Part shown: positions 1,619 to 27,795 of the stretch, piece by piece
Layout of the letters: every line of letters starts with the position of its first letter
Numbering within the stretch: the first letter of the stretch is position 1
NCBI RefSeq assembly: GCF_028618695.1
Contig: NZ_JAQIVI010000271.1
Coordinates: forward strand, 1-32,892
DNA length: 32,892 bases
Source of the DNA: Natrinema soli
Lineage (GTDB): Archaea; Halobacteriota; Halobacteria; Halobacteriales; Natrialbaceae
Direction of reading: 5' to 3'
Translations under genes and position numbers: made by a program
The notes under the pieces: model-generated
The model's database searches: none
Seen by the model: the letters and a program-made list of their open reading frames with translations, nothing else
Told to the model about the DNA's origin: nothing

Positions 1619-2842
1619 TCACCACATCCGCTCGAACACCGCTTCGATATCGGACTGGGTCGCCTCGAGTCCCCGCGGCCCGGCCTCCATGAACGGATCC
1701 TCGATGACCGCCTGCGCGAGTTCGGGGAAGTGACTCCGTTCCGCCCCCTCGACCGACCGGAGTTCCGACGGGAGATCGAGGGCGTCTCGCGTCTCCGCGA
1801 CGGCGTCGACGACCGCGTCGGCCGTCGCCTCGGCAGTGATCGTCTCGTCCCGAACGCGGAACGCTTCGGCCAGCAGATCCCGGCGACCGTCGACCTGCTC
1901 GAAGAGATAGCGGAGCACGTGCGGTGCGGTGATCGCGTGTGCGACCCCCTGCTGGACCTCGTAGTTCCGCGCGATGGCGTGGCCGAACGAGTGAACGACG
2001 GAGGCTCGATACGCGTTCGGGGTCGACAGTCCGTACTGTGCCGCGGCGATCCCCCGAACGATTCGGGAGAGATCGTCCTCGCCCATCGACTCCTCGGTGA
2101 TCGCCGGCAGCCCCTCGGATAGTAGTCGGACACCCCGAACCGCCGTTCCGTCGGTGATCGGATTATGATGTCTGGTGTACAGCATCTCGATCCCCTTGTC
2201 GAACCCGTTCATCGCCGACCGGGCGAGGATGCGTTCCGGCGTCGTGGCGAACAGTTCCAGGTCGTGGAAGACCGCCGTCGGCATCAGTCGGCTGTCGGAG
2301 ACGCCGGCGCTGGGGATTTCGGATTTGTCCTGGCCATCGGGATCCAGACTGAGTTTGACGCCCGCGACCTGCGAGAGATCGGCACCGGGGAGGGTCGTCG
2401 GAACCGCAAAGATGTCCGTCAGTTCGACACCTTCGTCGGGGAGGACCATTGCTTCCCGGTCCAGAATCTCGTCCGCGACGTCCTCGAGCGGACGGTCGTG
2501 TCCGGAGAGAACGCTGATCTGTTTCGCGATATCGAGGCTGCTCCCGCCGCCGAGCGCGATGAGCGCGTCGACTTCCTCGTCGCGGACGCGCTGAGCACCT
2601 TCGTACGCGGTCTGCAGGTACTTCTCCGGCGTCACTCCGTCGAAGATACCGACGAGTCGGTCGCCGGCCCCGTTCTCGACCGGCTCCATCACGACGGGGA
2701 CCTCGGACAGGGTGCCGTCGGTGACGATGAGGGCCCGCGAGAGGCCGTGACGGTCGAGTTCCGATTCGATAGTCGCGACGATACCCGGGCCGTGGTGGAT
2801 CGCGGCCGGTTCGTACTCGAAGGTAAATGAATTCCCGTTCAT
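1619..2842 (-). CDS. Iron-containing alcohol dehydrogenase-like / maleylacetate reductase-like oxidoreductase
   Basis: This 407-residue protein has the two-domain fold of group III (Fe-ADH) dehydrogenases, which reduce aldehydes or ketones with NAD(P)H. The dinucleotide motif GGGSSLD (98-104) is intact, and an all-helical C-terminal domain follows. At the metal site the usual Asp-His-His-His is altered. The pattern D-x3-H reads D215-K-G-I-E219, and the PHG His is Q298, while D215 and H284 remain. It may use another metal geometry or none. The ATG at 2842 is chosen over upstream starts because a TATA box (2871-2880) lies about 30 nt upstream, giving a leaderless mRNA. It could act on an aldehyde or maleylacetate-type product of the island. 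The substrate is unknown. Confidence 0.85.
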   Translation of the reverse strand: MNGNSFTFEYEPAAIHHGPGIVATIESELDRHGLSRALIVTDGTLSEVPVVMEPVENGAGDRLVGIFDGVTPEKYLQTAYEGAQRVRDEEVDALIALGGGSSLDIAKQISVLSGHDRPLEDVADEILDREAMVLPDEGVELTDIFAVPTTLPGADLSQVAGVKLSLDPDGQDKSEIPSAGVSDSRLMPTAVFHDLELFATTPERILARSAMNGFDKGIEMLYTRHHNPITDGTAVRGVRLLSEGLPAITEESMGEDDLSRIVRGIAAAQYGLSTPNAYRASVVHSFGHAIARNYEVQQGVAHAITAPHVLRYLFEQVDGRRDLLAEAFRVRDETITAEATADAVVDAVAETRDALDLPSELRSVEGAERSHFPELAQAVIEDPFMEAGPRGLEATQSDIEAVFERMW

Positions 2843-2995
2843 TCCGACCACTGACCGCTTCGACCTGTGAATATATAATAGTCGTCGTCCCTGAACGTTG
2901 TCACCGAAGAGAACCGCTCCGTCCGCCGGGCGTTTTCCGTTCAGCGGCGCGGATCGTGCACGTGTACTCGATCCCGGAGTACCCAACTTTTCGCT

Positions 2996-3703
2996 TCAGT
3001 CGTCCGCGCTGAGTTCGTCGATGATCGTCGATTCGTCGAGGAAGACGAAATCGTTATCGGCGGCGTACGATGCCGCATTGGTGCGAGAGAGCGCGCCGCC
3101 CGTCTCATCGTCGAGCATTTCACAGACGACAGCGGCCGGCGGAACGTCGGCCCGCTCGGCGAGCGCGACACCGAGTTCCGTGTGTCCCTGCCTGTTCTCA
3201 AGGAGGTTCGGCGCGGCCTTCAACAGGTGAACGTGTCCCGGAACGTCGAACTCGGCCGCGAACTCCGTCTCGGTCGGGCGCTGCGCCGCGTCGCCGAGCG
3301 CGGAGATAGTGAGCGCCCTGTCGTTATCGACGACTCCGGTGAAGGTCTCTCGGTGATTGACCGTCAGGGAGAACGACGACCGATCGTCGTATTCGATTTC
3401 GGTATCAGTCGTCGCCGGATGGTCGACCACCTCGTCGATGAACGATAATCCGAACTCCTCGGCGACGTCGTACGCCAGCGCAACGCAGATGAGTCCGCCC
3501 GCATCGTTTCGGAGGCGAGCGACGTCGGCCGGCGTAACGGAATACGCGGGATAGACGAGGTCGACCTCGTTTTCGCGCTCGGCGGCGTCGTGAATCAACA
3601 CCGGTTCGCCCCGTTTGAACGCCTCGACGGCGTTTTCAACTCCGCCGTCGGGGTCTTTCTGGCGGTACCTGTAGCTATCCGGGAGCATACTGTCACTCCA
3701 CAT
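2996..3703 (-). CDS. ribB: 3,4-dihydroxy-2-butanone 4-phosphate synthase
   Basis: RibB converts ribulose 5-phosphate to 3,4-dihydroxy-2-butanone 4-phosphate plus formate, the four-carbon precursor of riboflavin. This 235-residue protein carries the acidic loop ERENEVD near the N-terminus, RNDAGGLIC, the ETFTGVVDNDRA segment and the C-terminal pair PGHVHLLKA and RQGHTELGVALA, ending with CEMLDDETG. The second acidic-loop Gly is Val (canonical DREGE/NEGD), as in some archaeal forms. A Shine-Dalgarno-like GGTGAT sits 5 nt before the ATG at 3703. A second ATG at 3688 is a possible alternative. A riboflavin kinase gene lies 740 bp away and an LLM flavin monooxygenase follows, so this copy may feed FMN to that enzyme rather than serve only housekeeping. 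Confidence 0.9.
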   Translation of the reverse strand: MWSDSMLPDSYRYRQKDPDGGVENAVEAFKRGEPVLIHDAAERENEVDLVYPAYSVTPADVARLRNDAGGLICVALAYDVAEEFGLSFIDEVVDHPATTDTEIEYDDRSSFSLTVNHRETFTGVVDNDRALTISALGDAAQRPTETEFAAEFDVPGHVHLLKAAPNLLENRQGHTELGVALAERADVPPAAVVCEMLDDETGGALSRTNAASYAADNDFVFLDESTIIDELSADD

Positions 3704-3842
3704 CGGGGATCACCGTCGGCCGCAGTTCGTCGCTTCGCATGAATCATCGTGTGATATGATGACACGCCAAATAAACATTACTGTCGCATATCGAGAGTTC
3801 CACGCTGGAAAATGATAGCGACCCAGTGATTTAAGAGGTGAT

Positions 3843-4409
3843 ATGTCGAAGCGGTGGACGATGGATTCTCTCTTCGCCCCGTGGCGAATGCAGTGGGTGA
3901 ATCGGGAACGACCTGACGACGAAGACGATTCGGGGTGTCCGTTCTGCGCTCTCGTCGAGCAGGGCGACGACCGAGCGAGCAATATCGTCGCCAGAAGCGA
4001 ATACACCTTCGTTCTACTGAACAACATGCCGTACAATCCGGGACACGTGATGGTGCTGCCGTACGCTCACACCGGCGAGTTTCACACGCTCGACGGACGG
4101 GTGCTCGTCGATTGTATGAAGACGACACAGCTCGTCGTCACCGCGCTGAACGAGTCGCTCTCACCGGGCGGGTTCAACGTCGGGTTCAACATCGGTGCTG
4201 CAGGCGGTGCGTCGATTACGGACCATCTTCACCTCCATATCATTCCGCGCTGGGAGAGTGACACCTCCTTTTTGCCGCTTACGGCGAATACCGCGGTCGT
4301 CGAAGAAGCGGTCGACGAAACCTACGAGCGGCTCTCCGACGCGTTGCTCGAAACCGCGCAGGTGAGCGCCGCCGAGGGGAACGACTCCGTTCGAATCGAT
4401 CACGGCTGA
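3843..4409 (+). CDS. HIT-family nucleotide hydrolase/phosphorylase
   Basis: A 188-residue histidine-triad protein. HIT proteins cleave phosphoanhydride or phosphoramidate bonds in nucleotides such as Ap4A or AMP-NH2. The triad HLHLHIIP is at 128-135, with H128, H130 and H132. An N-terminal FAPWRMQWV followed by GCPFC (C32, C35) resembles the Ap4A-phosphorylase-like branch of actinobacteria, in which similar Cys residues help bind zinc. GAAGGASITDH before the triad is the usual nucleotide loop. The start at 3843 is favoured by the Shine-Dalgarno-like GAGGTGAT at 3835-3842; the ATG at 3861 is an alternative. It is divergent from ribB and convergent with ribK. A role in nucleotide or flavin-dinucleotide turnover is only an inference from its neighbours. 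Confidence 0.85.
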   Translation: MSKRWTMDSLFAPWRMQWVNRERPDDEDDSGCPFCALVEQGDDRASNIVARSEYTFVLLNNMPYNPGHVMVLPYAHTGEFHTLDGRVLVDCMKTTQLVVTALNESLSPGGFNVGFNIGAAGGASITDHLHLHIIPRWESDTSFLPLTANTAVVEEAVDETYERLSDALLETAQVSAAEGNDSVRIDHG

Positions 4410-4443: not shown

Positions 4444-4887
4444 TCAGTTCGAGAGCGATCCGCTATCCACAGTCTCGGTCTCCGACGGCGCAGACTCGAT
4501 GCGAATCGAGATCGAAGCGCCGTCGGAGAGCTCGAACCGTTCCCGAAGAGCGACGGGGGAGATGAGCTCGAGCGTCGACGTATCGTGGTCGGTCCGTTTC
4601 GGAACGATGGCGTGCAAACGGACGGACTCGTCAGCGTCGACGATCGTAGCGGGATAGCAGTAAACGATCCCGAACGAGCGGTCCCCATCCTGCCAGCCGT
4701 CGATACGTCTCGCCTCGAGTCGCTCGAATTGGCCATCGACCGAACGGGAAAGATCGAGATTGAGCGTTCCGGGATACGGTTCGTACCCCAATACGCCCTG
4801 AAACTGCCGAGAATATCCCTCTAGGGAGACGAACTCTTTGCCTCTACCGAACCCACTGGTGACGGTTCCGTCTACGGTAACTGTCAT
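4444..4887 (-). CDS. ribK: CTP-dependent riboflavin kinase (archaeal type, no HTH)
   Basis: RibK (DUF120 fold) phosphorylates riboflavin to FMN using CTP, an archaeal enzyme unrelated to bacterial RibF. This 147-residue protein shows the family signature in order: an N-terminal GTVTSGFGRG glycine loop, LEGYSRQF, the nucleotide/flavin-binding YEPYPGTLNLDL, and the C-terminal ELISPVALRERFELSDG. Many archaeal RibK proteins carry an N-terminal DNA-binding HTH; this one consists of the kinase domain alone. Its ATG overlaps the stop of the VOC gene by 4 bp (ATGA, 4884-4887), so it is translationally coupled to the LLM-VOC operon. That coupling supports local FMN production for the monooxygenase. 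Confidence 0.9.
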   Translation of the reverse strand: MTVTVDGTVTSGFGRGKEFVSLEGYSRQFQGVLGYEPYPGTLNLDLSRSVDGQFERLEARRIDGWQDGDRSFGIVYCYPATIVDADESVRLHAIVPKRTDHDTSTLELISPVALRERFELSDGASISIRIESAPSETETVDSGSLSN

Positions 4888-5300
4888 GTATTGGATCTCT
4901 GATCTTCCTTAAGCGGAGCCGAGATCTCGACCGTATAGTCGTCGGGATCGGCCAGGAGAGCCATCCGCCGTCCCCACTCGACATCGGTGGGATCCATCCG
5001 GACCGTCTCGTCCGCTTCGGCGGCCCGCTCGCAGACGGTGTCGACGGCTTCCGGATCGTCGACGCCGATCGCGACGATGACGCCTCGTCCCCGCTCGTCG
5101 CCGGGTTCGTCCAGACCGAACCCGTCGAGCACCTCCTGATCGAAGTCCGACTCGAGGACGAGCGTACACTCCCCGGTGTCGAACTCCACGTTCCCGTCGT
5201 TTCTCTCCACGGGCGCTACTCCGACGAGGTCCCGGTAGAACGCCACCGACGCCTCGAGGTCCGAGACCATCAACAGCGACTGGTGAAGCGATGGCGACAT
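4884..5300 (-). CDS. VOC-superfamily protein (glyoxalase/bleomycin-resistance fold)
   Basis: A 138-residue protein with two beta-alpha-beta modules of the vicinal oxygen chelate fold. The first spans HQSLLMVSDLEASVAFYRDLVG and the second GVIVAIGVDDPEAV to DPDDYTVEIS, the common DPDGNxxEL end. Such proteins bind a metal and act as isomerases, dioxygenases or binding proteins, and one domain of this length usually dimerises. The ATG at 5300 is preferred to the TTG at 5312. The gene starts 18 nt after the LLM stop and overlaps ribK by 4 bp, so LLM, VOC and ribK look like one transcript. The reaction is unknown. Confidence 0.8.
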   Translation of the reverse strand: MSPSLHQSLLMVSDLEASVAFYRDLVGVAPVERNDGNVEFDTGECTLVLESDFDQEVLDGFGLDEPGDERGRGVIVAIGVDDPEAVDTVCERAAEADETVRMDPTDVEWGRRMALLADPDDYTVEISAPLKEDQRSNT

Positions 5301-5318
5301 AGCTGTATTCAACTCGTC

Positions 5319-6482
5319 TCAGGGGTTGACGTCGCCGATCTTGTCGGCTTCGGGCTTGACCTCGTCGGCGTACAGTCGGAGGTTCTTGCGGACCTTCCAG
5401 TCGGGGAGGTCGCCGAAGTGGAACTGACCGACGATCCGCCCGAACCCGCCGACGGCCTCGTACTGTTTCTCGAGTTGTTCGACGACGTACTCGGGAGTGC
5501 CGACGATCGTCTCGCCGTACTCCTGGAACTCCTCGAAGTCGTAATTGAACGCGAACTCGCCGTGTGGGTGGAGCTGTTCGACGTACTCGTCCCACTTCTC
5601 GGGGTCGTAGGGCTGATCGCCCATCATGCCCGCCGAGACGCCGATGTGGACGCCGGCGGTGAGCGTCTGGTAGAACTTTCGGAGGTGGGGCTCCGCTTCC
5701 TCGCGGGCTTTTTCCATCGTCTCGGCGACGTAGATGGCTCGCATGACGCTGAAGTCTTCGTCGCTGGGACTCCAGCCGTAGTCGTCCTCGGCGTACTGGC
5801 GGTACTCGCCGAATTTCTCGGTGATGGTTTCGACCGGCTGGAAGACCAGCCCCGTCGGGACCTGTTTTTCGGCGGTAAAGCGCAGCGACTCTTCGCTCTC
5901 GGCCGGCATCCAGAGCGGCGGATGGGGATCCTGATAGGGCCGGGGCCAGATGTAGACGTTCTCGTACTGGAAGTGTTCGCCGTCCCAGTCGAAGGGTTCG
6001 TCGGCGGTCCAGGATTTGATGATGAGATCCCACGCTTCCTCGAAGCGACTGCGGGACTCCTCCATGTCGATTCCGTACGCGAGGTACTCGCTGGGGATGC
6101 CGCGGGGGAAGCCGCTGATGATCCGACCTTCGGTGATGTTGTCCAGCATCGCGAGTTCCTCCGCGAGTCGGATCGGGTTCTCGCGGAGCGCCGGCAGATT
6201 CCCGAAGAACGCGATCGTGGTATCGTCGGTGCGGGCCGCCAGGTTCGACGCCGTGATGTTCGGACCCGGCTGCAACCCGTAGGCGTTGAAGTGGTGCTCG
6301 TTGACGCCGATACCGTCGAATCCCAGCTCGGCGGCGTACTCGAGCTGGCCGAGATAGTCCTGATAGTACTGCGCCCCCTTCTCCGGATCGTACTCGTGTT
6401 CGATCCAAGGCCAGGCGGATTTCTTTTCGGTAATATTGTCAATATCCTGATACGGCATCAGATGGAACGCAAAGGTTTCCAT
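5319..6482 (-). CDS. LLM-class (luciferase-like) flavin-dependent monooxygenase
   Basis: A 387-residue TIM-barrel protein of the bacterial luciferase-like family, whose members use reduced FMN (or F420) with O2 to oxidise organic substrates. Recognisable segments are FAFHLMPYQDID at the N-terminus, GFDGIGVNEHHFNAYG, NPIRLAEELAMLDNI, GRIISGFPRGIPSEY and WPRPYQDPHPPLWMP, as in luciferase-like hydroxylases. A TATA box at 6507-6516 lies about 29 nt from the ATG at 6482, so the mRNA is probably leaderless. This favours 6482 over the upstream ATG at 6497. The downstream VOC and ribK genes are co-transcribed, and ribB follows on the same strand. FMN rather than F420 is therefore likely, but not proven. 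A fossil of a second copy lies at 26663-26705. Confidence 0.9.
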   Translation of the reverse strand: METFAFHLMPYQDIDNITEKKSAWPWIEHEYDPEKGAQYYQDYLGQLEYAAELGFDGIGVNEHHFNAYGLQPGPNITASNLAARTDDTTIAFFGNLPALRENPIRLAEELAMLDNITEGRIISGFPRGIPSEYLAYGIDMEESRSRFEEAWDLIIKSWTADEPFDWDGEHFQYENVYIWPRPYQDPHPPLWMPAESEESLRFTAEKQVPTGLVFQPVETITEKFGEYRQYAEDDYGWSPSDEDFSVMRAIYVAETMEKAREEAEPHLRKFYQTLTAGVHIGVSAGMMGDQPYDPEKWDEYVEQLHPHGEFAFNYDFEEFQEYGETIVGTPEYVVEQLEKQYEAVGGFGRIVGQFHFGDLPDWKVRKNLRLYADEVKPEADKIGDVNP

Positions 6483-6505
6483 GTGGTCACTGTTCACATG
6501 GCACC

Positions 6506-6517
6506 ACTTAATAGTAC
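6506..6517 (-). promoter_or_regulatory. TATA box of the LLM-VOC-ribK operon, with a nearby inverted repeat
   Basis: On the minus strand TACTATTAAG is centred about 29 nt before the LLM ATG at 6482. Between the box and the start, GTGGT (6483-6487) and ACCAC (6503-6507) form the arms of an imperfect inverted repeat, placed where a repressor would block initiation. The operator role is inferred. Confidence 0.5.
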
Positions 6518-7205: not shown

Positions 7206-7931
7206 ATGCTAACGGTTAGCGGTGTTACCAAACGCTTCGGCGGGCTGACCGCAGTCGACGACGTCAGTCTCGGCATCGATCGCAACGAGATCGTCGGCTT
7301 GATCGGCCCCAACGGAGCGGGGAAGACGACGCTTTTCAACACCATCGCCGGCGTGTATGCGCCGGTGACCGGTTCGATCACGTTCCGTGGAGACGAACTG
7401 ATCGGGAAGGGGCCCCACGAAATCGCACGGCACGGCATCACCCGTACCTTCCAGACGGCGCGGACGTTCAACGAATCGACGGTTATCGACAACGTTCTCG
7501 CCGGCGCCGTCTTCGGGAAGGAGGACCCGGATTCGCTGGCGGACGAACGAGAGAACGTCCGGCAGTACCTCGAGTTCATCGGTCTCGACGGGAAGGCCGA
7601 GGAGGACGCGAGCAGCCTCACGATCGCGCATCGGAAACAGCTCGAATTAGCGCGGGCGCTCGCGTCGGAACCAGAACTCATTCTGGTCGACGAGATCGGA
7701 AGCGGGTTGACACCGACCGAACTCGACGAACTCTCCCGGAACCTCCGACAGATACGGAACGAGTTCGGCATCTCCGTGTTCTGGATCGAGCACGTGATGG
7801 ACGCGATCATGAACGCGACCGATCGAATTATCGTCCTCAATCAGGGGAAGAAAATCGCCGACGGAACGCCGACGCAGATTCAACAGGATAGCCGAGTCGC
7901 CGAGGCGTACCTCGGAGGTGCGGAGGCGTAG
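7206..7931 (+). CDS. livG: Branched-chain-type ABC transporter ATP-binding protein (LivG-like)
   Basis: A 241-residue ATPase of the LivG type, which powers import with LivF, LivH, LivM and a LivK-type binding protein. Walker A is GPNGAGKT (34-41), the LivG-typical TFQTARTF follows near 81-88, Walker B is LILVDE (158-163) and the switch His is H196. The signature loop is unusual: LTIAHRKQLE (138-147) replaces the common LSxGQQ form, although the following LARALASEP is normal. A TATA box at 7176-7181 lies 28 nt from the ATG, so the mRNA is probably leaderless. The stop is one base before the livF ATG, indicating co-transcription. The substrate class may be amino acids, amides or aromatic acids. 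Confidence 0.9.
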   Translation: MLTVSGVTKRFGGLTAVDDVSLGIDRNEIVGLIGPNGAGKTTLFNTIAGVYAPVTGSITFRGDELIGKGPHEIARHGITRTFQTARTFNESTVIDNVLAGAVFGKEDPDSLADERENVRQYLEFIGLDGKAEEDASSLTIAHRKQLELARALASEPELILVDEIGSGLTPTELDELSRNLRQIRNEFGISVFWIEHVMDAIMNATDRIIVLNQGKKIADGTPTQIQQDSRVAEAYLGGAEA

Positions 7932-7932
7932 T

Positions 7933-8631
7933 ATGATCTCGGTCGAAGACATCGACGTTCACTACGGCGATCTTCAGGTGCTGTGGGAACTTTCGCTCGA
8001 GATCAGAGAGGACGACTCTATCGTCGCGATCGTCGGCCCGAACGGAGCGGGGAAGACGACTCTCCTCAAGACGCTCTCTGGGGTACTCAGACCGACGACC
8101 GGCAGTATCGAACTGTTCGGCGAGGCGACGCACGACCTCTCCCCGAGCGACATCGTTCAGCGGGGATTCGTCCACGTCTCGGAAAAGCGAAATCTGTTCC
8201 ACGATCTGACGGTGTACGAGAACCTCCGAATGGGTGCGTATACGCAACGTGACGAGTTCGACGAGACCTACGAGGAAGTCACCGATATGTTCCCCGTTCT
8301 CGAGGAGCGCCGCGACCAGAAGGCGGGGACGCTCAGCGGCGGCGAACAACAGATGCTCGCGATCGGGCGCGGACTGATGGCACACCCGACGGTCCTGGCG
8401 CTCGACGAACCGTCCGGCGCGCTCGCGCCGCAGTTGGCGGGGCGCGTCTTCGAGAAGATAGACGAGATCAGCGAGGACATCACGATCATTCTCATCGAAC
8501 AGCACGTCGATCAGGCCCTCGACCTGTCGGATCGCGTCTACCTGCTCGAGAACGGTCGGATCGCTACCGAAGGGACCGGGGCCGAGATGCTCGAAAGCGA
8601 CCACGTGAGAGAGACGTACCTGAGTGGCTGA
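7933..8631 (+). CDS. livF: Branched-chain-type ABC transporter ATP-binding protein (LivF-like)
   Basis: A 232-residue ATPase, the LivF partner of the importer. Walker A is GPNGAGKT (35-42), the signature LSGGEQQ (134-140) is canonical, Walker B is LALDEP (155-160) and the switch segment is IEQHVDQAL. The ATG at 7933 is one base after the livG stop, so the two are translated from one message; the upstream in-frame start at 7918 would overlap livG. A complete signature here next to a degenerate one in livG gives an asymmetric ATPase pair. A MITE is inserted 56 bp after the stop, separating livF from livK. Confidence 0.92.
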   Translation: MISVEDIDVHYGDLQVLWELSLEIREDDSIVAIVGPNGAGKTTLLKTLSGVLRPTTGSIELFGEATHDLSPSDIVQRGFVHVSEKRNLFHDLTVYENLRMGAYTQRDEFDETYEEVTDMFPVLEERRDQKAGTLSGGEQQMLAIGRGLMAHPTVLALDEPSGALAPQLAGRVFEKIDEISEDITIILIEQHVDQALDLSDRVYLLENGRIATEGTGAEMLESDHVRETYLSG

Positions 8632-8686
8632 TCGTTCCGTTCAGAACTCCGTCTTCTAAGCGAATTTTCGCGGATCAGTCGTTTTC

Positions 8687-8694
8687 TGCCGCCC
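8687..8694. repeat. Left 8-bp target-site duplication of the MITE
   Basis: TGCCGCCC at 8687-8694 is repeated exactly at 8927-8934 on the other side of the element. Eight base pairs is the duplication length known for IS6-family insertion. Confidence 0.85.
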
Positions 8695-8926
8695 GGTACT
8701 GTCTAGATAAGGGAAACCGCAAGACAGGACGACAATGAAGTGACGGTATCGGTTGTGAAATTACCATCTATGATTTAACATAAAGAGACCCTGTTCCACG
8801 AGCAGCGAAAATTCGGCTGCTTCAGCAAACGTCCCATAAACAGTAATGGTCCCAGATCCCATCGGTGTTGCTTCGACAGACGCTGAAACGGCGTTTGACG
8901 TTAGAATCGCTTAACTAGACAGTGCC
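8695..8926. mobile_element. 232-bp MITE with IS6-type inverted repeats
   Basis: The left end GGTACTGTCTAGATAAGGG and the reverse complement of the right end, GGCACTGTCTAGTTAAGCG, match at 16 of 19 positions. The element is flanked by the perfect 8-bp direct repeat TGCCGCCC. It has no open frame of note, so it must have been moved in trans by an IS6-family transposase with the same termini. The terminus at position 66 is nearly identical. The element fills most of the livF-livK gap and ends 38 bp before the livK TATA box. It may have split an original livGFK transcript, but that is inference. Confidence 0.85.
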
Positions 8927-8934
8927 TGCCGCCC
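8927..8934. repeat. Right 8-bp target-site duplication of the MITE
   Basis: An exact copy of TGCCGCCC from 8687-8694, directly abutting the right inverted repeat. Confidence 0.85.
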
Positions 8935-9001
8935 CATCACGTCAACTGTTATCAACCACCAAAGTTTTAATACGTATCGGGTAGCTTGAGAATATGGCAG
9001 T

Positions 9002-10228
9002 ATGACTAGAACGCCTGAGACGCGCATGAACAGACGTAACTATATCAAAGCAACTGGCACTGGCGTCAGTACGTCGCTCCTGGCCGGGTGCTTCATCAGC
9101 GGTGAGGGGAGCAGTGACACGATCACGATTGTCGCCCTCGAACCGTTGTCGGGCGTGTTCTCGGTGTACGGTCCGCGGCACCGAGACGGAGCCGAGTTCG
9201 CGGCCGAACAGATAAACGCCGACGGCGGCGTCCGTGACCGGGACATAGAGATCGATGTCGTCGACACCGAGGGAACGGCCCAGGAGACAGTGACGGCCTT
9301 TACCGAGGCGATCGAGCGGAACAACGCGGTCGCGGGGATCGGGCCGGGTGCGTCCGAGGCGGCGATTCGCGGCGGCGACATCGCACTGGAGAACGAGGTC
9401 CCGCTGTACTTGCATGCTGCAGGTGCCGTCGCAGCGAACCCGCGGGACAACGACTACGTCTTCCGGACGAGCCTGCCCGCGACCCCGACGGTCGGGAGAG
9501 CACAGGCCCAGATGATCGAAGAGGGAGGGTACAACAACATCGGTGTCATCTTCGAGGACGGCGTCTGGGGTGACGAGTACAGTGCCGCGATAGACGCGTA
9601 CTTCCCCGACGGCATCACCCTCACTACCGAGACCGCACCGATCCCCGAAACGGACTTCGTCCCCTTGTTGCGCGGATTCCCCGACGATACCGAGGTGATA
9701 CTCGGGAGCGGCCATCCGGCGGGCGTCAGCAGCATGTACAACCAAGTGTACGAAGTCGGTCTCGACCCGGATCTGTATCTCGGTGCCATCACGCCGATGG
9801 AAGCGGATTACGACGCGCTCGGAGACGACATCGAAGATTCGTTCGCCTCGTTCAACGCGACGGACATGTACAGCGACGACTACGCGGACGTGGCGTCGAC
9901 GTACCAGAATGAAACCGGAGACGTCTTCGACCACGCGCAGGTCAACGGGTACGTCTCGGTTCAGTTGATCGCCAACTCGATAGAGGAAGCGGGATCGGCC
10001 GATCCGGCCGACATCGCCGAGGCGACGCGAACGGGCTCCTTCGACCTCCTCTTCGGATCGCCGATCGAGTACACGGAGTGGGGCGAGATCGAGAATTCGG
10101 TCCAGATCTACAACTCCTTCACCATCGGCGAATCGCCGGACCACTGGCCCGACGTCGGCTTCGCCCCGGAAGAAGCGTTCCGGACGGATCCGCTCCCGGC
10201 GTACGAACCCGGGGAACTCGACATATAA
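9002..10228 (+). CDS. livK: ABC transporter substrate-binding lipoprotein (LivK-like)
   Basis: A 408-residue periplasmic-binding-protein fold of the leucine/amide-binding family, which captures substrate outside the cell for the LivFGHM importer. The N-terminus has a twin-Arg-like RRNYIK and a lipobox LAGC with the lipidation Cys at 30, the usual Tat lipoprotein export of haloarchaea. The mature part begins ITIVALEPLSGVFSVYG and carries the PLSG...G ligand-loop pattern, then FAAEQINADGG, typical of the family. A TATA box at 8965-8972 lies about 33 nt before the ATG. It is convergent with livM. The neighbouring genes suggest that the cargo is the catabolic substrate of the island. Confidence 0.92.
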   Translation: MTRTPETRMNRRNYIKATGTGVSTSLLAGCFISGEGSSDTITIVALEPLSGVFSVYGPRHRDGAEFAAEQINADGGVRDRDIEIDVVDTEGTAQETVTAFTEAIERNNAVAGIGPGASEAAIRGGDIALENEVPLYLHAAGAVAANPRDNDYVFRTSLPATPTVGRAQAQMIEEGGYNNIGVIFEDGVWGDEYSAAIDAYFPDGITLTTETAPIPETDFVPLLRGFPDDTEVILGSGHPAGVSSMYNQVYEVGLDPDLYLGAITPMEADYDALGDDIEDSFASFNATDMYSDDYADVASTYQNETGDVFDHAQVNGYVSVQLIANSIEEAGSADPADIAEATRTGSFDLLFGSPIEYTEWGEIENSVQIYNSFTIGESPDHWPDVGFAPEEAFRTDPLPAYEPGELDI

Positions 10229-10509
10229 CACGCTGCTTTTCCGGCGGTTCCGTACCGACGAATCCGGTCTCGAGACAGCATATCGGGACGCCCGTTGACG
10301 TCTTGTTGTACTCTCACCCGCCGTACCGACGGTTTCCCCTCGTCCACTCTACGGCGATGGACGGAACGCTGTCGAGTAGTTCTCGGTGAGATACCAACGG
10401 GCGGGATTGGGAGCCGTGTTGGAACGCTTCGCTTCCAGACCATCCCACTCGAGCGAGCGGGTTCTACTGCCCGCCGAACGTGAGAAACGAGACGAACCGG
10501 AGCTGCCGG
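10229..10509. other. Convergent livK/livM intergenic region
   Basis: 281 bp between the convergent stops of livK and livM. CCGTACCGACG occurs at about 10249 and again near 10320. I see no RNA gene, no clear U-tract terminator and no inverted-repeat pair that would mark an element. Confidence 0.4.
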
Positions 10510-11505
10510 TTACGAACGCGCCAGCAATTCGGTGGCGCGCCGTCTGACACCGTATTTGTCGAGGCACTTCTCGGAGAAGGGAACGACTCCCTGTCGGAAG
10601 TAGAGGAAGAGTGCCATGAGCAACAACCCGAAGAGAATCGATCGGTACTCGGCGAAATTCCGGAGCTGCTCGTTCAGGTAGATGATCAACGCCGCGCCGA
10701 TGAGCGGCCCGTACATCGTTCGGAGCCCGCCGACGATGAGCATGATGAGAATCATCACGTCGATGTTGTTGAACGTGAACGTGCCGGGGCCGATGAACCC
10801 CGATAGCTGACCGAAGAACGGACCGGTCAGCCCGATAGCGAACGTCGCGATGAACCCGGCGATCACCTTGTACTTGACGACGTTGAGTCCGATGGATTTC
10901 GCCGCCGTCTCGTCCTGACGAATCATCTCAAACGCGAGCCCGTACTTCGAGTTCAGCAGATACTGGTAGAGCGCCAACAGCGCGAGGAGAATCGCGCTGA
11001 GGGTGTAGAAGAGGACGATGTCCTCGGTGAACCACGGGAGGTTCTCGAGCGGCCGAATTCGGAGCTCGTTGAACATGAGACCCGTGACGCCGCCCGTAAT
11101 ATCCCGCAAACTGTTAATCAACTCGATGAGGGAAAACTGCAGCGCGAGCGTGAGAATCGAAATGACGATAACCGTGAGATCGCGGATGGCCGCGACGTAC
11201 GTCACGACGATACCGACGATTCCGGCGAAGGAAGCGCCCAGAAGGAGGGTGAGCCAAGGGGACACACCGAGCCACTGCGCTCCGAGGGCCGTCGTGTAGG
11301 CACCGATCGCGGCGACTGCTCCCGTAAACAGGAGAAGCTGATCGGTGTGGCCGAAGACGATGTTGAGCGCCGTCGTCAAGATTGCGTACAGCGCCATCAG
11401 GATGAAGATACGCGCTATGTAACCCGCCCCGGGAGCGAAGAACGACGGCGGAATGAGGACGAGTACGAGCGCGACGATTGCGAGGCGGTGGGAATCCCAG
11501 TTCAT
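10510..11505 (-). CDS. livM: Branched-chain-type ABC transporter permease (LivM-like)
   Basis: A 331-residue polytopic permease of the LivM type. Hydrophobic segments begin at LAIVALVLVLIPPSFF and continue through most of the protein. The hallmark YAILTTALNIVFGHTDQLLL near residue 40-60 and the cytoplasmic EMIRQDETAAKSIGLNV EAA-like loop, which contacts the ATPases, are clear. It ends with a Pro-rich GVVPF and a basic tail. The ATG overlaps the livH stop by 4 bp (11502-11505), so it is translated after LivH from the same mRNA. Membrane protein; it forms the channel with LivH. Confidence 0.92.
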   Translation of the reverse strand: MNWDSHRLAIVALVLVLIPPSFFAPGAGYIARIFILMALYAILTTALNIVFGHTDQLLLFTGAVAAIGAYTTALGAQWLGVSPWLTLLLGASFAGIVGIVVTYVAAIRDLTVIVISILTLALQFSLIELINSLRDITGGVTGLMFNELRIRPLENLPWFTEDIVLFYTLSAILLALLALYQYLLNSKYGLAFEMIRQDETAAKSIGLNVVKYKVIAGFIATFAIGLTGPFFGQLSGFIGPGTFTFNNIDVMILIMLIVGGLRTMYGPLIGAALIIYLNEQLRNFAEYRSILFGLLLMALFLYFRQGVVPFSEKCLDKYGVRRRATELLARS

Positions 11506-12487: not shown

Positions 12488-13114
12488 TTACTCGGGCCCG
12501 AAACTCTCGATCTCGACGGTATCGAGGTCGACTCCGACTCGAGTAAGAGCTTCTTTCGTCTCTTCGACGAACTGTTGGAATCCGAACGCGTAGATTTCGA
12601 CCGTGGAGAGATCGAGCGATTCGACTGCGGCTCCGAGGTCGTCCGAGAGAACGACCGTGGTACCGCTTTCTTCCAGGGTCGTGAGACGATCTCCGTGTGG
12701 CGGGTGGCTGCCGCCGTAGAGGATCGTCACGTCGTGATCCAGCCGCCGGGCGCGCTCGGCGATACCGACCGCCGGTCCGATACCGGGTCCGCTCGCGAAC
12801 ACGAGAGCGTCACCGTCGTCGATATACTGGATGTCGCCGAACGGACCCTCGACGGTGATCGTCTCGCCGAGCGTGCGTTCGACGAGCCAGGGGCCGAGCG
12901 TCCCGTCGGGATCAGCCGCGACCGTCAGTTCGAACCGTTCCTCGACGTCAGGAGAAGAGATCGTATAATACCCGGTTTCTTCCTCGCCGTCGATGGTCGC
13001 CCGGACCAAGACGAACTGTCCGGGATAGGCCTCGAAATCGGCCGGCGCTTCGACTTCGATAGCGGCAGTTCGGTCACCGACGTCCTCGAGTCTGGTAATT
13101 CGCAGTTCCGGCAT
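12488..13114 (-). CDS. FNR-superfamily flavin/NAD(P)H reductase (Fre/LuxG-sized)
   Basis: A 208-residue protein with the ferredoxin-NADP reductase fold and no iron-sulfur domain. Residues 1-100 form the FAD/FMN-binding barrel with GQFVLVRA and the flavin motif YYTISSP (49-55), plus GPFGD (90-94). The second half is the pyridine-nucleotide domain with ASGPGIGPAVG (107-117) and a C-terminal VEIESFG. Size and layout resemble Fre/LuxG reductases, which supply free reduced flavin to monooxygenases. It could be the reductase partner of the LLM enzyme, but it might equally reduce another redox partner. A TATA box at 13139-13146 is about 28 nt from the ATG, so the mRNA is probably leaderless. Confidence 0.85.
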   Translation of the reverse strand: MPELRITRLEDVGDRTAAIEVEAPADFEAYPGQFVLVRATIDGEEETGYYTISSPDVEERFELTVAADPDGTLGPWLVERTLGETITVEGPFGDIQYIDDGDALVFASGPGIGPAVGIAERARRLDHDVTILYGGSHPPHGDRLTTLEESGTTVVLSDDLGAAVESLDLSTVEIYAFGFQQFVEETKEALTRVGVDLDTVEIESFGPE

Positions 13115-16820: not shown

Positions 16821-16947
16821 TGGTAATCCCCTGATTGAGACTACTCGTTGCTGTCGATCGGAGATGAAACGGCGAAACGAGGCCCGAGAGCGTCGATATC
16901 CGGCGCAGTCACAAAGTATTTCTTCGATACACCCGACCGTGTGCAGT

Positions 16948-17574
16948 ATGCCCGCGACGGACGATGACTTGGACGAAACTCGAGGTCGGAACAGCAAGGT
17001 CAACCGTCTCATAGAGACGTACGAACTGCGGGGTCTCGGCGGGGAACTCGAACGATTATGGACGGCCGATGAAAGCGAGAATCGAAAGAGTTTGCGCGAA
17101 CTCGCGACCTTGTTCAACCGACGATTGGTACAGAGTGCGATGGAAGACGTCAGAATGCAATCGCTCGACGGTGAGGCGGAGAATATCTGCCGGCTCCTCA
17201 CTGACGAGCACGTCGCCAGTGCCGATCGCACGCGAACGCGTCGGCGACTCGAACGGGACGGCGTCGACGTCGACGCGCTCGAAGCCGATTTCGTCTCGTA
17301 CCAGTCGATACGGACCTATCTCACCACCTATCGGGATGCGAGTTACACGAAGAACGCCGAATCCACGAACTCGGTCAAAGAGACGGTCCAGCGGTTACGA
17401 AGCAGGATTACGGAAGTCACGGAGAGCAAACTATCCCGTTTAGCGAAGCGGGGCGAACTACTCCCCGGCGATTTCCGCGTTATCGTCGATATCCGTGCCG
17501 TCTGCGAAAACTGCGGCACGCAAACGGGCGTGATTGCGCTCATAGACGACGGCGGCTGTGACTGTCAGGAGTAG
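16948..17574 (+). CDS. rdfA: Rod-determining factor RdfA homologue
   Basis: A 208-residue haloarchaeal protein recognised as RdfA, a cell-shape factor needed for rods in Haloferax volcanii. The N-terminal part reads GRNSKVNRLIETYELRGLG and ELERLWTADESENRKSLREL, the usual family opening. Helical, coiled-coil-prone segments follow, and the end is DFRVIVDIRAVCENCGTQTG with CDC near the terminus. C186, C189, C204 and C206 may form a zinc site. The ATG at 16948 is set by AGTATTTC at 16915-16922, about 30 nt upstream. It precedes an SMC-related gene on the same strand, an arrangement seen for rdfA elsewhere. How it acts is not known from sequence. Confidence 0.8.
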   Translation: MPATDDDLDETRGRNSKVNRLIETYELRGLGGELERLWTADESENRKSLRELATLFNRRLVQSAMEDVRMQSLDGEAENICRLLTDEHVASADRTRTRRRLERDGVDVDALEADFVSYQSIRTYLTTYRDASYTKNAESTNSVKETVQRLRSRITEVTESKLSRLAKRGELLPGDFRVIVDIRAVCENCGTQTGVIALIDDGGCDCQE

Positions 17575-17750
17575 TCCCGACTCCCGAAATAAAACGCTGC
17601 GTGCCGATTACGTTCTGCTACGGTCTGCATAACCGAGAGACAGCCGTAGCGTGAACGGACCACGCCGAGCGCTACTGACACGTAACTTCGTTCGGAGACG
17701 GAATACAGTCGTTTCGATAGAACAAATAAGTTATCCGTCTCGGAGCGAAA

Positions 17751-19712
17751 ATGAGCGACAATATGGATTCTACACAAAAGAAGCACGGAACGGTGCACGT
17801 CGATATCGAGAATATCGGTGGTATCGACCGGACGGACGTCGCATTCGAACCGGGAGTCACGTTACTGGTCGGTCGAAACGCGACAAACCGCACCTCCTTC
17901 CAGACTGCCCTTATGGCCGCACTGGGGAGCGACAGTGCCTCCCTCAAAGGCGATGCTGAAGAAGGGCACGTCGAACTGTCGGTCGACGGCGAAACCTACT
18001 CTCGGACGTTGACTCGAGATGGACCGACCGTTCGGACTACTGGCGACGCGTATTTCGACGATCCGACGCTCGGTGATCTCTTCGCGTTCCTTCTCGAGAA
18101 CAACGACGCCAGACAAGCCGTCGCTCGAGGTGACGATCTTCGAGAGATTATCATGCACCCGATCGACACGAAGGAGATTCAGTCGGAGATCGACCGGCTG
18201 CTGGAGCGAAGAAGCGACGTGGAACGTCGACTGGACGAAATCGACTCCCTGAAACGGGAGCTTCCGTCGCTGGAGGCGGAGAGACGCGATCTCGACGGCG
18301 AAATCGAGGAGAAAAAATCCGAGCTCTCGGAAATAGAGGAGGAGATAGATCAGAAAGACGCCGATATCGAGGAAAGCAGGCAAACGGAGGACGAAGCGGA
18401 CGAGAAACTCGACGAGTTACAGGAGACGAGGCGCGAACTCACCGACGTTCGATACGATCTCGAAACGGAACAGGACAGTGTCGCTGAGCTGCGATCGGAA
18501 TTGCAGGAGCTAGAGGACGAGCGGGCCGAACTCTCGGAGATGAATGCGGATGAACTCCAGCGGATCGAATCGGAAGTCGACCGTCTTCGGTCGAAAAAAC
18601 GAGCGATAGAATCGGAGATCAGTGAACTCCAGAGTATTCTGCAGTTCAACGAGGGAATGCTGGAAGACGTCGACGACGAGATCCTCTCCGCTCTCGGTTT
18701 CGAAAAGAGCGAACAGGAATCGGTGACGGACAGATTGGTGCCCGACGACACCGTCCAGTGTTGGACCTGTGGCAGTACGGTCGAGGCCGACCAGATCGAA
18801 GCGACCGTCGACACGCTTCGCGAGCTCAGCCGAACGAAATTCCAAACGGTACGGGAGATCGACGACGACCTCAAGGAACTGAAGCAGAAGAAGCGAGCGA
18901 TACAACAGCAGAAACAGCGTCGAGAACGGCTGGATACGAAGCTGCAGCGGGTGGAGCAAAACATCGAGCGGAGTACGGCTCGCATCGAAGACCTGCAGGA
19001 TCGACGGGACGAGTTCACTCAGGAGATCGAACGCATCGAAGAAACGATCGGCAAACGGGAAGACGAAGCGCGAAGCGAGATACTCTCCCTTCACAGGGAC
19101 GCGAACCAGCTCGAGTACGAACTCGGACAACTCGAAAACGAGCGCGAGAGCGTGGACGACGAAATCACCGCGATCGAGGAACAGCTGGCCGAGCAGCGCG
19201 ACTTGGAAGACGAGGCGGACGAGATACGGGACGAGGTAGAACAGCTCCGGACGAGAATCGATCGAATAGAGCAGGAAGCGGTCGAAGAATTCAACCACCA
19301 TATGGACGAGATTCTCGACCGGCTCGGATACGAAAACCTCGAGCGCATCTGGCTCGAACGAGTCGATACTGCGGTTCGTGACGGCCGGAAGAAAGTCTCC
19401 AAAACGACGTTCGAACTCCATATCGTGAGAACGACTGCGTCCGGCACTTCCTACGAGGATACCGTCGATCATCTCAGCGAGAGCGAACGGAACGTGGCCG
19501 GACTCGTCTTTGCGCTGGCCGGGTATCTCGCACACGACGTCTACGAGACGCTTCCGTTTATGGTGTTAGATTCCCTCGAAGCGATCGACTCGAAACGGAT
19601 CGCGAAGCTGGTCGACTACTTTCAGGGCTACTGTCAGTATCTCGTCGTCGCGCTGCTGCCGGAAGACGCCGAATCGCTCGACGGCGACTACGAGCGGATA
19701 ACGGAGATATAA
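17751..19712 (+). CDS. Archaea-specific SMC-related protein (Sph-like coiled-coil ATPase)
   Basis: A 653-residue Rad50/SMC-like protein. The N-terminal head has a Walker A variant GRNATNRTS (41-49), with Arg in place of the usual Lys. Two long coiled coils (about 140-325 and 355-540) flank a zinc-hook-like C337-W-T-C340 at the hinge, as in Rad50. The C-terminal head has the signature HLSESERNVAGLVFALAG and a Walker B-like PFMVLDSLEAID in which Asp-Ser replaces Asp-Glu. The ATPase is therefore altered or weak. An AATAAGTTA box at 17725-17733 lies about 24 nt before the ATG. Being next to rdfA, it probably acts with it in cell shape or chromosome organisation. Confidence 0.85.
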   Translation: MSDNMDSTQKKHGTVHVDIENIGGIDRTDVAFEPGVTLLVGRNATNRTSFQTALMAALGSDSASLKGDAEEGHVELSVDGETYSRTLTRDGPTVRTTGDAYFDDPTLGDLFAFLLENNDARQAVARGDDLREIIMHPIDTKEIQSEIDRLLERRSDVERRLDEIDSLKRELPSLEAERRDLDGEIEEKKSELSEIEEEIDQKDADIEESRQTEDEADEKLDELQETRRELTDVRYDLETEQDSVAELRSELQELEDERAELSEMNADELQRIESEVDRLRSKKRAIESEISELQSILQFNEGMLEDVDDEILSALGFEKSEQESVTDRLVPDDTVQCWTCGSTVEADQIEATVDTLRELSRTKFQTVREIDDDLKELKQKKRAIQQQKQRRERLDTKLQRVEQNIERSTARIEDLQDRRDEFTQEIERIEETIGKREDEARSEILSLHRDANQLEYELGQLENERESVDDEITAIEEQLAEQRDLEDEADEIRDEVEQLRTRIDRIEQEAVEEFNHHMDEILDRLGYENLERIWLERVDTAVRDGRKKVSKTTFELHIVRTTASGTSYEDTVDHLSESERNVAGLVFALAGYLAHDVYETLPFMVLDSLEAIDSKRIAKLVDYFQGYCQYLVVALLPEDAESLDGDYERITEI

Positions 19713-26705: not shown

Positions 26706-26838
26706 GGAACCGCTTCCAGATCCCTCTACAGCTCCGCTGTTTGATACCATCCAAAAAGTGGTAGCAGAAACCTAACTGGCCGATATTTCATGGAAAACTA
26801 TTTTAGGGTTCCCTCTAAACGTAATGGTGTACCATACC

Positions 26839-27795
26839 ATGCCAGAGATTCCAGGGATCCACCACGTAACAGCGTTCTGTGACGACCCGCAGGAAAACTA
26901 CGACTTCTTCACGAACGTTCTCGGGATGCGCTTCGTCAAGCGAACGGTCCGCTTCGACGTTCCCGAGAAGATCTATCACCTCTACTACGGGGACGAGGAG
27001 GGGACGCCCGGCACGATCGTGACCTACTTCCCGATGACCAACATGCCGATGGAGGAGGGGATGGTCGGCAAGGGAATGATGCGCTCGGTCGGGCTGACGA
27101 TTCCCGACGGCTCGGTCGACTACTGGACGAACCGCTTCGAAGAGCACGACGTCGAGTTCACGCTCGACGAGCGCTTCGACGAGACCGCCATCGAGTTCAC
27201 CGATCCCGACGGCCTTCCGTTCGAACTCGTCACCGGTGAGTCGGACATCGAGCCGTGGACAGATGGCAGCGACGTTCCCGCCGAACACGGCATCCGCGGG
27301 ATGTTCAACACGACGCTGCACTCGAACGATCCAGCCGGCACCATGGACGTCCTCGAGACGATGGGGTGGGATCGCGTCGGCGAAGCAACTCACCCGCAGG
27401 CGGGCGACCGCATCCGATATGAAGCACCCGGCGACGCGCCGTGTGCCACCACGGTCGACGTCCTCATTCGTCCAAACGCACCGCAGGGCCGCATGGGAAT
27501 CGGCACCTACCTCCACGTCGCCTACCGCGTCGCCAACGGCTGGGAACAGGACGAGGTCAGCGACACCCTCCGCGAAAACGGCTACATCACCACCTCGACG
27601 AAGGATCGCGACTACTTCCACTCGCGGTACATCACCGAACCCGGTGGTGCCATCTTCGAGTACGCGACCGACGGGCCCGGCTTCACCATCGATCAAGACC
27701 CCGCCGAGTACGGCGACGAACTGAAAGTTCCCGACTGGCTCGAGGTCGACATCGAGCGGATCGAAGAGATGCTCCCGCCACTCGAAACCAACTGA
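26839..27795 (+). CDS. Ring-cleaving VOC-family dioxygenase
   Basis: A 318-residue extradiol-type dioxygenase of the hydroquinone/MhqO-like VOC group. Four beta-alpha-beta modules are expected; the N-terminal GIHHVTAFCDDPQENYDFFT and YFPMTNMPMEEGMVGKG form are clear. The likely Fe(II) ligands are H9 (IHHVT), a His in TYLHVAYRV in the second half and a Glu in AIFEYATDGPGF. These enzymes open dihydroxylated rings. The ATG at 26839 is chosen as the conserved family start; an in-frame ATG at 26824 is the alternative. A CTATTTTAGG box at 26799-26808 lies upstream. It would act before the FAH-type hydrolase in a ring-fission pathway, which is an inference. Confidence 0.88.
   Translation: MPEIPGIHHVTAFCDDPQENYDFFTNVLGMRFVKRTVRFDVPEKIYHLYYGDEEGTPGTIVTYFPMTNMPMEEGMVGKGMMRSVGLTIPDGSVDYWTNRFEEHDVEFTLDERFDETAIEFTDPDGLPFELVTGESDIEPWTDGSDVPAEHGIRGMFNTTLHSNDPAGTMDVLETMGWDRVGEATHPQAGDRIRYEAPGDAPCATTVDVLIRPNAPQGRMGIGTYLHVAYRVANGWEQDEVSDTLRENGYITTSTKDRDYFHSRYITEPGGAIFEYATDGPGFTIDQDPAEYGDELKVPDWLEVDIERIEEMLPPLETN

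What the first reader, a model, noticed from the sequence alone, without database searches (positions are those of the whole stretch)
4444..6482. A lux-rib-like arrangement in an archaeon: LLM monooxygenase coupled to its own FMN supply
A luciferase-like monooxygenase, a VOC protein and a CTP-dependent riboflavin kinase overlap as one operon, with ribB next on the same strand. A Fre/LuxG-sized reductase (12488-13114) is in the same island. Marine luminous bacteria place rib genes beside lux genes for a similar reason. Here the archaeal enzymes (RibK, RibB) are recruited, and the RibK has no HTH domain, so the pathway is probably a second, dedicated copy. I know of no described archaeal counterpart.
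Basis: partly seen in the sequence, partly recalled or inferred. Interest (0 to 1): 0.78.

Follow-up and report, generated by a model that had tools for sequence, protein, structure and literature searches.

The report
Monooxygenase with its own flavin supply
In some salt-loving archaea a pathway built round a flavin-using oxygenase carries its own extra copies of two vitamin B2 (flavin) genes, apparently without the usual shut-off control, much as glowing bacteria keep flavin genes beside their light-making genes.

Summary
In detail: LLM, VOC and an HTH-less CTP-dependent riboflavin kinase (RibK) lie in one operon, with a paralogous ribB next on the same strand. All 391 haloarchaeal genomes searched hold a riboflavin kinase gene; 18 gave two or more matches. 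LLM orthologs occur in 5 of 391, and each of those 5 has an extra RibK-RibB pair within 8 kb. More widely, in 8 of 9 genomes with a resolvable extra pair, an LLM gene lies within 2 kb of it, against 0 of 20 housekeeping loci. The LLM subfamilies differ and the ribB tree needs at least five switches, so recruitment was repeated. A putative RbkR operator lies before 20 of 20 housekeeping rbkR genes and was not found at the LLM-linked loci: these copies seem to have left flavin feedback. Bacteria show parallels, so this is a new archaeal variant of a known kind. FMN supply, co-transcription and substrate are inferred. The window's own assembly is not held, so its housekeeping copy is inferred too.

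The parts
5319..6482 (-). LLM: FMN-type luciferase-like monooxygenase, 387 aa
   Evidence: PF00296; nearest solved chains 7bip, 8cbb, 1brl; orthologs in 5 of 391 genomes
4884..5300 (-). VOC protein, second gene of the operon (first-stage ORF start 5312)
   Evidence: PF00903; same place after LLM in all the window-type loci
4444..4887 (-). RibK: CTP-dependent riboflavin kinase paralog without the HTH domain, 147 aa
   Evidence: PF01982; MJ0056 relative with intact motifs; short clade of 28 rows, support 98/96; no HTH
3843..4409 (+). HIT-domain protein on the opposite strand between RibK and RibB
   Evidence: PF01230; also at the Haladaptatus, Haloarcula and G236 (L029) pairs
2996..3703 (-). [quoted passage not shown]
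   Evidence: PF00926, above TIGR00506 cut-off; M. jannaschii enzyme 1pvw nearest solved; clade of 6, support 99/97
1619..2986 (-). iron-containing alcohol dehydrogenase, directly after RibB
   Evidence: PF00465; lactaldehyde-reductase type
6506..6513 (-). TATA-like box TATTAAGT before LLM; its core TTAAGT is conserved in 6 of 6 aligned loci
3769..3776 (-). TATA-like box GTTTATTT before RibB; TTTAT conserved in 6 of 6 aligned loci
12488..13114 (-). FNR-superfamily reductase, 208 aa, candidate flavin reductase
   Evidence: PF00970; weak match to Fre 1qfj; model pLDDT 84 matches FNR-type FAD/NAD reductases over its length
26824..27795 (+). ring-cleaving dioxygenase of the MhqO/PcpA type, same island
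   Evidence: 3oaj MhqO E 6.1e-63, 4huz PcpA E 6.9e-42

Best explanation
The window carries a catabolic island whose key oxygenation is done by a two-component, FMNH2-dependent luciferase-like monooxygenase. RibK (riboflavin + CTP to FMN + CDP) and RibB (first step of the butanone branch of riboflavin synthesis) are paralogs of the housekeeping rbkR-ribB pair kept with the pathway to raise FMN when the pathway is switched on; an FNR-type reductase of the island probably makes FMNH2. Loss of the DNA-binding domain and of the RbkR operator frees these copies from the flavin-sensing repression that governs the housekeeping pair. Shown by sequence: the genes, the repeated linkage, the missing HTH and missing operator. 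Inferred: enzyme activities, co-transcription, induction, FMN as limiting cofactor, reductase partner, substrate.
For: Synteny LLM-VOC-RibK-RibB in the window plus five other species. LLM orthologs in 5 of 391 genomes, each with an extra RibK-RibB pair 0.4-7 kb away (Fisher p 1.2e-7). LLM within 2 kb of 8 of 9 resolvable extra pairs against 0 of 20 housekeeping loci (p 2e-6; expected 0.05 LLM per 20 kb). Different LLM subfamilies (23-30% identity over long alignments) and a ribB tree needing at least 5 changes, one LLM-linked clade rejected at p-AU 0.023. Putative RbkR operator at 20 of 20 housekeeping genes, at most 11.8 bits at the LLM-linked loci. RibK and RibB motifs intact.
Against: One extra pair of nine (H. 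turkmenica, L022) has no LLM nearby, yet also lacks the operator; Natrinema halophilum (L034) has a RibK but no RibB was found and its LLMs are 6.5 kb or more away. Extra ribB alone sits in other settings (L031, L032, L037). L024, L022 and L027 keep a recognisable HTH. The FNR-like gene was not found in the fetched stretches of L018, L023, L024, L025. The nearest bacterial LLM (Neorhizobium, about 40%) has no rib gene among 16 annotated features. In L023 and L024 the RibK glycine-rich loop is altered. No activity or expression data.
Confidence: 0.72

Rival explanations
1. The RibK and RibB paralogs have taken on a new task: they modify a pathway intermediate (phosphorylation by CTP, or cleavage of a sugar phosphate) or make a modified flavin, and do not feed the FMN pool.
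For: The short RibK clade is well apart from RbkR (44-47% identity to the nearest HTH proteins), and extra ribB genes also sit in sugar-type clusters.
Against: Motifs of both enzymes are intact in the window, both genes come as a pair, and linkage is specific to LLM genes of unrelated subfamilies, whose shared need is reduced FMN.
Confidence: 0.14
2. The rib genes only ride along: large catabolic plasmids and islands pick up a spare flavin pair, and the nearness to LLM genes reflects that LLM genes are common in such islands.
For: Several loci are on plasmids or secondary replicons, and LLM genes are frequent (199 in 18 genomes).
Against: The extra pairs lie within 2 kb of an LLM in 8 of 9 genomes, the window-type RibK overlaps its neighbour gene, and different rib pairs stand by orthologous LLMs (window against G027).
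Confidence: 0.09
3. The LLM is F420-dependent and the linkage serves another flavoenzyme of the island.
For: F420-type NCBIfam models also score (TIGR03619 78.8 bits, below cut-off), and haloarchaea make F420 (recalled).
Against: Best model is luciferase alpha (100.3 bits, also below cut-off); the 18 PDB sequences at E <= 0.001 carry names of luciferase-type or other FMN-type enzymes where named, none named F420-dependent; four of five LuxA FMN-phosphate residues are identical and the fifth is T to S (roles recalled).
Confidence: 0.05

Closest known systems
lux-rib operons of Photobacterium and luxH (ribB) of luminous Vibrio
   Same: Flavin-synthesis genes kept beside an FMNH2-dependent luciferase-family enzyme and a flavin reductase.
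   Different: Here one LLM and no luxB or luxCDE genes seen; the kinase is the archaeal CTP type; only ribB of the synthesis genes; catabolic setting. Known to me from recall and from a reference title in PMC9378992.
mel2 locus of Mycobacterium marinum (PMC1793995, passages seen)
   Same: Non-luminous cluster with an LLM; passages say its genes resemble luxA, luxG and luxH, and a figure legend lists flavin reductase, DHBP synthase and GTP cyclohydrolase II domains.
   Different: Bacterial, no riboflavin kinase mentioned in the passages; I did not see which gene carries the DHBP synthase domain.
Plasmid clusters LLM - flavin reductase - RibB or RibBA (M. branderi, Rhodococcus oxybenzonivorans, Azospirillum oryzae)
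   Same: Extra RibB beside an LLM and a flavin reductase in catabolic clusters.
   Different: Bacterial RibB/RibBA and reductase families; no kinase gene annotated in the stretches shown.
RbkR-RibB locus of haloarchaea (HVO_0326-HVO_0327; PMC8305020, passages seen)
   Same: Same enzyme families and gene pairing; evident source of the paralogs.
   Different: RbkR is also a regulator with HTH and, by the present scan, an operator; the window copy has neither.
MJ0056 riboflavin kinase of Methanocaldococcus jannaschii
   Same: Enzyme-only RibK without HTH; nearest solved relative.
   Different: MJ0056 is a different lineage; the window copy falls in a haloarchaeal paralog clade (MJ0056 itself was not in that tree).

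Membership tests
CTP-dependent riboflavin kinase (PF01982) | Domain match over the curated cut-off | tested here: met
   120.2 bits against 25
CTP-dependent riboflavin kinase (PF01982) | Conserved glycine-rich loop, PGTLN and RT-H motifs | tested here: met
   present in the window copy; that these bind substrate is recalled
CTP-dependent riboflavin kinase (PF01982) | CTP-dependent phosphorylation of riboflavin | not testable with these tools
   needs an assay
RbkR regulator-kinase | N-terminal winged HTH | tested here: not met
   9 codons of open frame upstream; no HTH match
RbkR regulator-kinase | RbkR operator near its gene | tested here: not met
   no site over 8 bits in the window by a matrix built here; the motif itself is inferred, not from a paper
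DHBP synthase RibB | Family match over cut-off and aligned catalytic stretches | tested here: met
   TIGR00506 207 against 177.45 bits; aligns with 1pvw over 209 residues
FMN-dependent luciferase-like monooxygenase | PF00296 domain and FMN-phosphate residues | tested here: met
   152.3 bits; R107, R125, E175, S176 of LuxA identical, T179 to S (roles recalled)
FMN-dependent luciferase-like monooxygenase | Uses FMNH2 from a reductase | not testable with these tools
   candidate reductase present in the island
Bacterial luciferase (lux) system | LuxA equivalog score | tested here: not met
   100.3 bits against a cut-off of 600
Bacterial luciferase (lux) system | luxB partner and luxCDE aldehyde-making genes | tested here: not met
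   none among 30 window ORFs scanned with Pfam; rest of the genome not held

The most novel reading that the evidence does not exclude
In haloarchaea the rbkR-ribB locus has been captured at least several times by unrelated FMNH2-monooxygenase pathways, and in the window lineage it was turned from a self-limiting into a feedback-free flavin supply by loss of the repressor domain and of the operator, so that flavin output follows the pathway's substrate instead of the cell's flavin level. A bolder addition: the HIT protein that often lies between RibK and RibB may recover FMN from FAD.
Probability: 0.55. Interest if true: 0.72.

Novelty: new variant of a known kind. Interest (0 to 1): 0.6.

Why it matters
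It extends the lux-rib principle (an oxygenase that bleeds reduced flavin brings its own flavin genes) to archaea and to catabolism, gives an evolutionary replicate set, and offers a clear test of whether cofactor supply limits flavin-dependent catabolism. Extra RibK-RibB pairs also become a genomic marker for unknown FMNH2-dependent pathways, and the loss of HTH and operator is a simple route from regulator-enzyme to constitutive or substrate-driven enzyme.

Tried and rejected
Maleylacetate reductase as the role of the Fe-ADH (to complete a hydroquinone route): rejected, its best matches are lactaldehyde-reductase-type enzymes. A full hydroquinone pathway: left open; only the MhqO/PcpA-type dioxygenase is well supported. 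LLM fold comparison: the model was poor (pLDDT 52.4) and was not searched. A lux system: rejected (score, no luxCDE family). One operon for LLM to RibB: rejected for the window because of the HIT gene and RibB's own TATA-like box. Universal linkage of extra ribB with LLM: rejected, 5 of 8 sampled bacterial plasmid copies and L022, L031, L032, L037 have no LLM in the stretch seen. Papers PMC6868719, PMC13104607 and PMC3169409 (passages only) held nothing on the question; the search term 'ribB' had matched 'ribbon' in one of them.

Full report
What is there. On the minus strand the window holds LLM (5319-6482), VOC (4884-5300), RibK (4444-4887) and RibB (2996-3703), followed by an iron-containing alcohol dehydrogenase (1619-2986); a HIT gene (3843-4409) lies on the other strand between RibK and RibB. 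VOC and RibK overlap by four bases, LLM and VOC are 18 bases apart. A TATA-like TATTAAGT stands 24 bases before the LLM start codon, with TTAAGT kept in 6 of 6 aligned loci, and a second TATA-like box (TTTAT in 6 of 6) before RibB. I read this as two promoters: LLM-VOC-RibK and RibB-FeADH. Other genes of the island are a branched-chain-type ABC transporter, an FNR-like reductase, hydrolases, an SDR, an IclR regulator, amidohydrolases, an FAA hydrolase, an MhqO/PcpA-type ring-cleaving dioxygenase and a family III CoA-transferase. This looks like an island for breakdown of an aromatic or cyclic compound; the substrate is unknown.

Is RibK a second copy? The window's own assembly is not held. All 391 class genomes searched have a PF01982 match, and 18 have two or more. 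Two of the 18 (G018, G062) look like one gene matched in two pieces, and the extra matches of G120, G126, G310 and G246 are distant relatives (28-38% identity); those of G328 and G269 were not found with the window RibK at all. The short RibK proteins of the window type form one clade of 28 rows with support 98/96, holding window, N. zhouii, G272, G239, Haladaptatus, Haloarcula and 22 database proteins.

Linkage with LLM. Orthologs of the window LLM (E <= 1e-60) occur in 5 of 391 genomes: G001, G272, G027, G239, G271. All five are among the 18 with extra matches and all five have an extra RibK-RibB pair 0.4 to 7 kb away; Fisher p 1.2e-7. I then took all genomes of the 18 whose extra RibK and RibB lie together on a contig that is not broken there: nine (G001, G144, G182, G272, G314, G372, G027, G239, G271). 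An LLM profile built here from ten of these loci's LLMs found an LLM gene within 2 kb of the pair in eight; G182 (Haloterrigena turkmenica) has none in 19 kb (neighbours). G236 was left out because its two extra pairs sit on contigs of 11.5 and 6.9 kb while LLM fragments lie at the ends of two other short contigs. As control, none of 20 housekeeping rbkR-ribB loci of 19.9 kb (15 from genomes of the 18, 5 from single-copy genomes) had an LLM hit, nor did the housekeeping locus of G027 (L026). The profile is my own, so sensitivity could be questioned; in the Pfam listing (150 of 199 rows shown, 16 of the 20 control genomes covered) I also saw none within 10 kb of a housekeeping pair. 8 of 9 against 0 of 20 gives p 2e-6; density gives 0.05 LLM per 20 kb.

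Repeated recruitment. The window LLM is 54-98% identical to those of the five genomes and Haladaptatus, but only 23-28% to the LLMs beside the pairs of L021, L023, L024 and the second LLM of L025; these differ from one another too, except L023 and L025b at 53%. In the ribB tree the six window-type genes form a clade (99/97), while L021, L023, L024 and L025 fall elsewhere. One clade of all ten LLM-linked genes is rejected at p-AU 0.023, a test run after the tree was seen, and at least five changes are needed. Support in parts of this tree is low and L021 is a long branch, so the number is rough. G027 pairs an orthologous LLM with a different rib pair, which I count as strong evidence that the LLM pathway needs the function and not a given gene.

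Loss of feedback. Upstream of the housekeeping rbkR genes a 26-base site, consensus ATGCATTCCACATTCGGTATGCTTTT with a GCATaCC-GGTATGC inverted repeat, lies at nearly one distance (312-322 bases before the kinase domain) in 20 of 20 loci (26.7-43.3 bits). The matrix was trained on these 20, so that score range is partly by construction. Loci not used for training also have it: the housekeeping locus of G027 (26.0) and the ribB-only copies L031 (24.1) and L032 (27.4). The window, L003, L004, L005, L016, L018, L021, L023, L024, L025, L027, L029 and L034 have nothing above 11.8 bits; neither have L022 and L037, which are not LLM-linked, so the loss is not specific to LLM linkage. I infer that this is the RbkR operator; the paper that defined RbkR sites is not held. 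The window-type RibK has also lost the HTH (9 codons of open frame upstream; no match), whereas L024, L022 and L027 keep it, L025 and L029 weakly, and in L021 and L023 it is not recognisable.

Chemistry. RibK aligns with MJ0056 and TA1064 with motifs intact; RibB with the M. jannaschii enzyme. The LLM's nearest solved relatives are 7bip, 8cbb and luciferase alpha; R107, R125, E175, S176 and H44 of LuxA are identical and T179 is S (I counted the numbering by hand and recall the roles). The FNR-like protein matches Fre weakly by sequence; its model (pLDDT 84.4) matches FAD/NAD reductases of the FNR class over its length. It is near six of the LLM loci examined in whole or part (window, L003, L016, L020, Haladaptatus L038, L021; a fragment in L028) and not found in L018, L023, L024, L025. 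So a partner reductase is likely in the window but not linked everywhere.

Comparison with bacteria. In plasmid records, hand-picked extra ribB genes lie with an LLM and a flavin reductase in Mycobacterium branderi, Rhodococcus oxybenzonivorans and Agrobacterium pAt1D1609b, with a flavin reductase and an acyl-CoA-dehydrogenase-family gene in Pseudonocardia, and in a sugar-type cluster in Rhizobium T136. Of 24 evenly spread rows, 16 had a named feature; I examined 8 of them (one more is the haloarchaeal record; 7 were not looked at). LLM within 6 kb: 3 of 8; an FMN reductase next door but no LLM: 1; sugar ABC genes instead: 4. Passages of PMC1793995 describe mel2 as similar to luxA, luxG and luxH, with DHBP synthase in a figure legend; passages of PMC6498646 list a DHBP synthase/GTP cyclohydrolase II and an NADH-FMN oxidoreductase in a Rhodococcus central pathway. 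PMC12239570 (passages) shows an LLM acting as a Baeyer-Villiger enzyme in steroid breakdown, a possible model for the window LLM.

Verdict. It is a new archaeal variant of a known logic, not a new kind of system. What is missing is any experiment.

Noticed in passing
L031 (G120) and L032 (G310), about 9.3-10.2 kb: Extra ribB genes without a kinase beside an FGGY sugar kinase and a lipoyl-ligase-like gene, with an operator-like site upstream; bacterial plasmid ribB genes also recur beside sugar ABC transporters. A second, different use of extra ribB.
   Followed up: partly
G120:C5:214586, G126:C2:301675, G310:C2:57062, G246:C1:1221813: Distant PF01982 relatives (28-38% identity to the window RibK) in open frames of 313-455 aa; a possible separate DUF120 family.
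   Followed up: no
window 5319-6482 against L004: The LLM is 91.5% identical to the Haladaptatus plasmid copy while RibK is 61% and RibB 76%: the parts of the cluster have different histories or constraints.
   Followed up: no
window 3843-4409; L029 4448-4984: A HIT gene stands by the RibK-RibB pair in window, Haladaptatus, Haloarcula and, beside an unrelated pair, G236; none in the 20 housekeeping loci. Role unknown.
   Followed up: partly
window 6479-6501: Inverted repeat CCATGTG-N9-CACATGG over the LLM start; kept in N. zhouii, nearly in G272, not in the other three aligned loci. Possible regulator site.
   Followed up: partly
window 16864-19712: An rdfA-like gene and an archaeal SMC-like gene inside the catabolic island; the same pair lies near the N. 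zhouii, Haloarcula and Natrinema halophilum clusters.
   Followed up: no
L018 12219-12612: The VOC match in G239 is split over two reading frames.
   Followed up: no
L037 (Natronosalvus amylolyticus plasmid) 7565-10928: A ribB-only copy between a FAD-binding oxidoreductase and a sulfite oxidase: another flavoenzyme neighbourhood.
   Followed up: no
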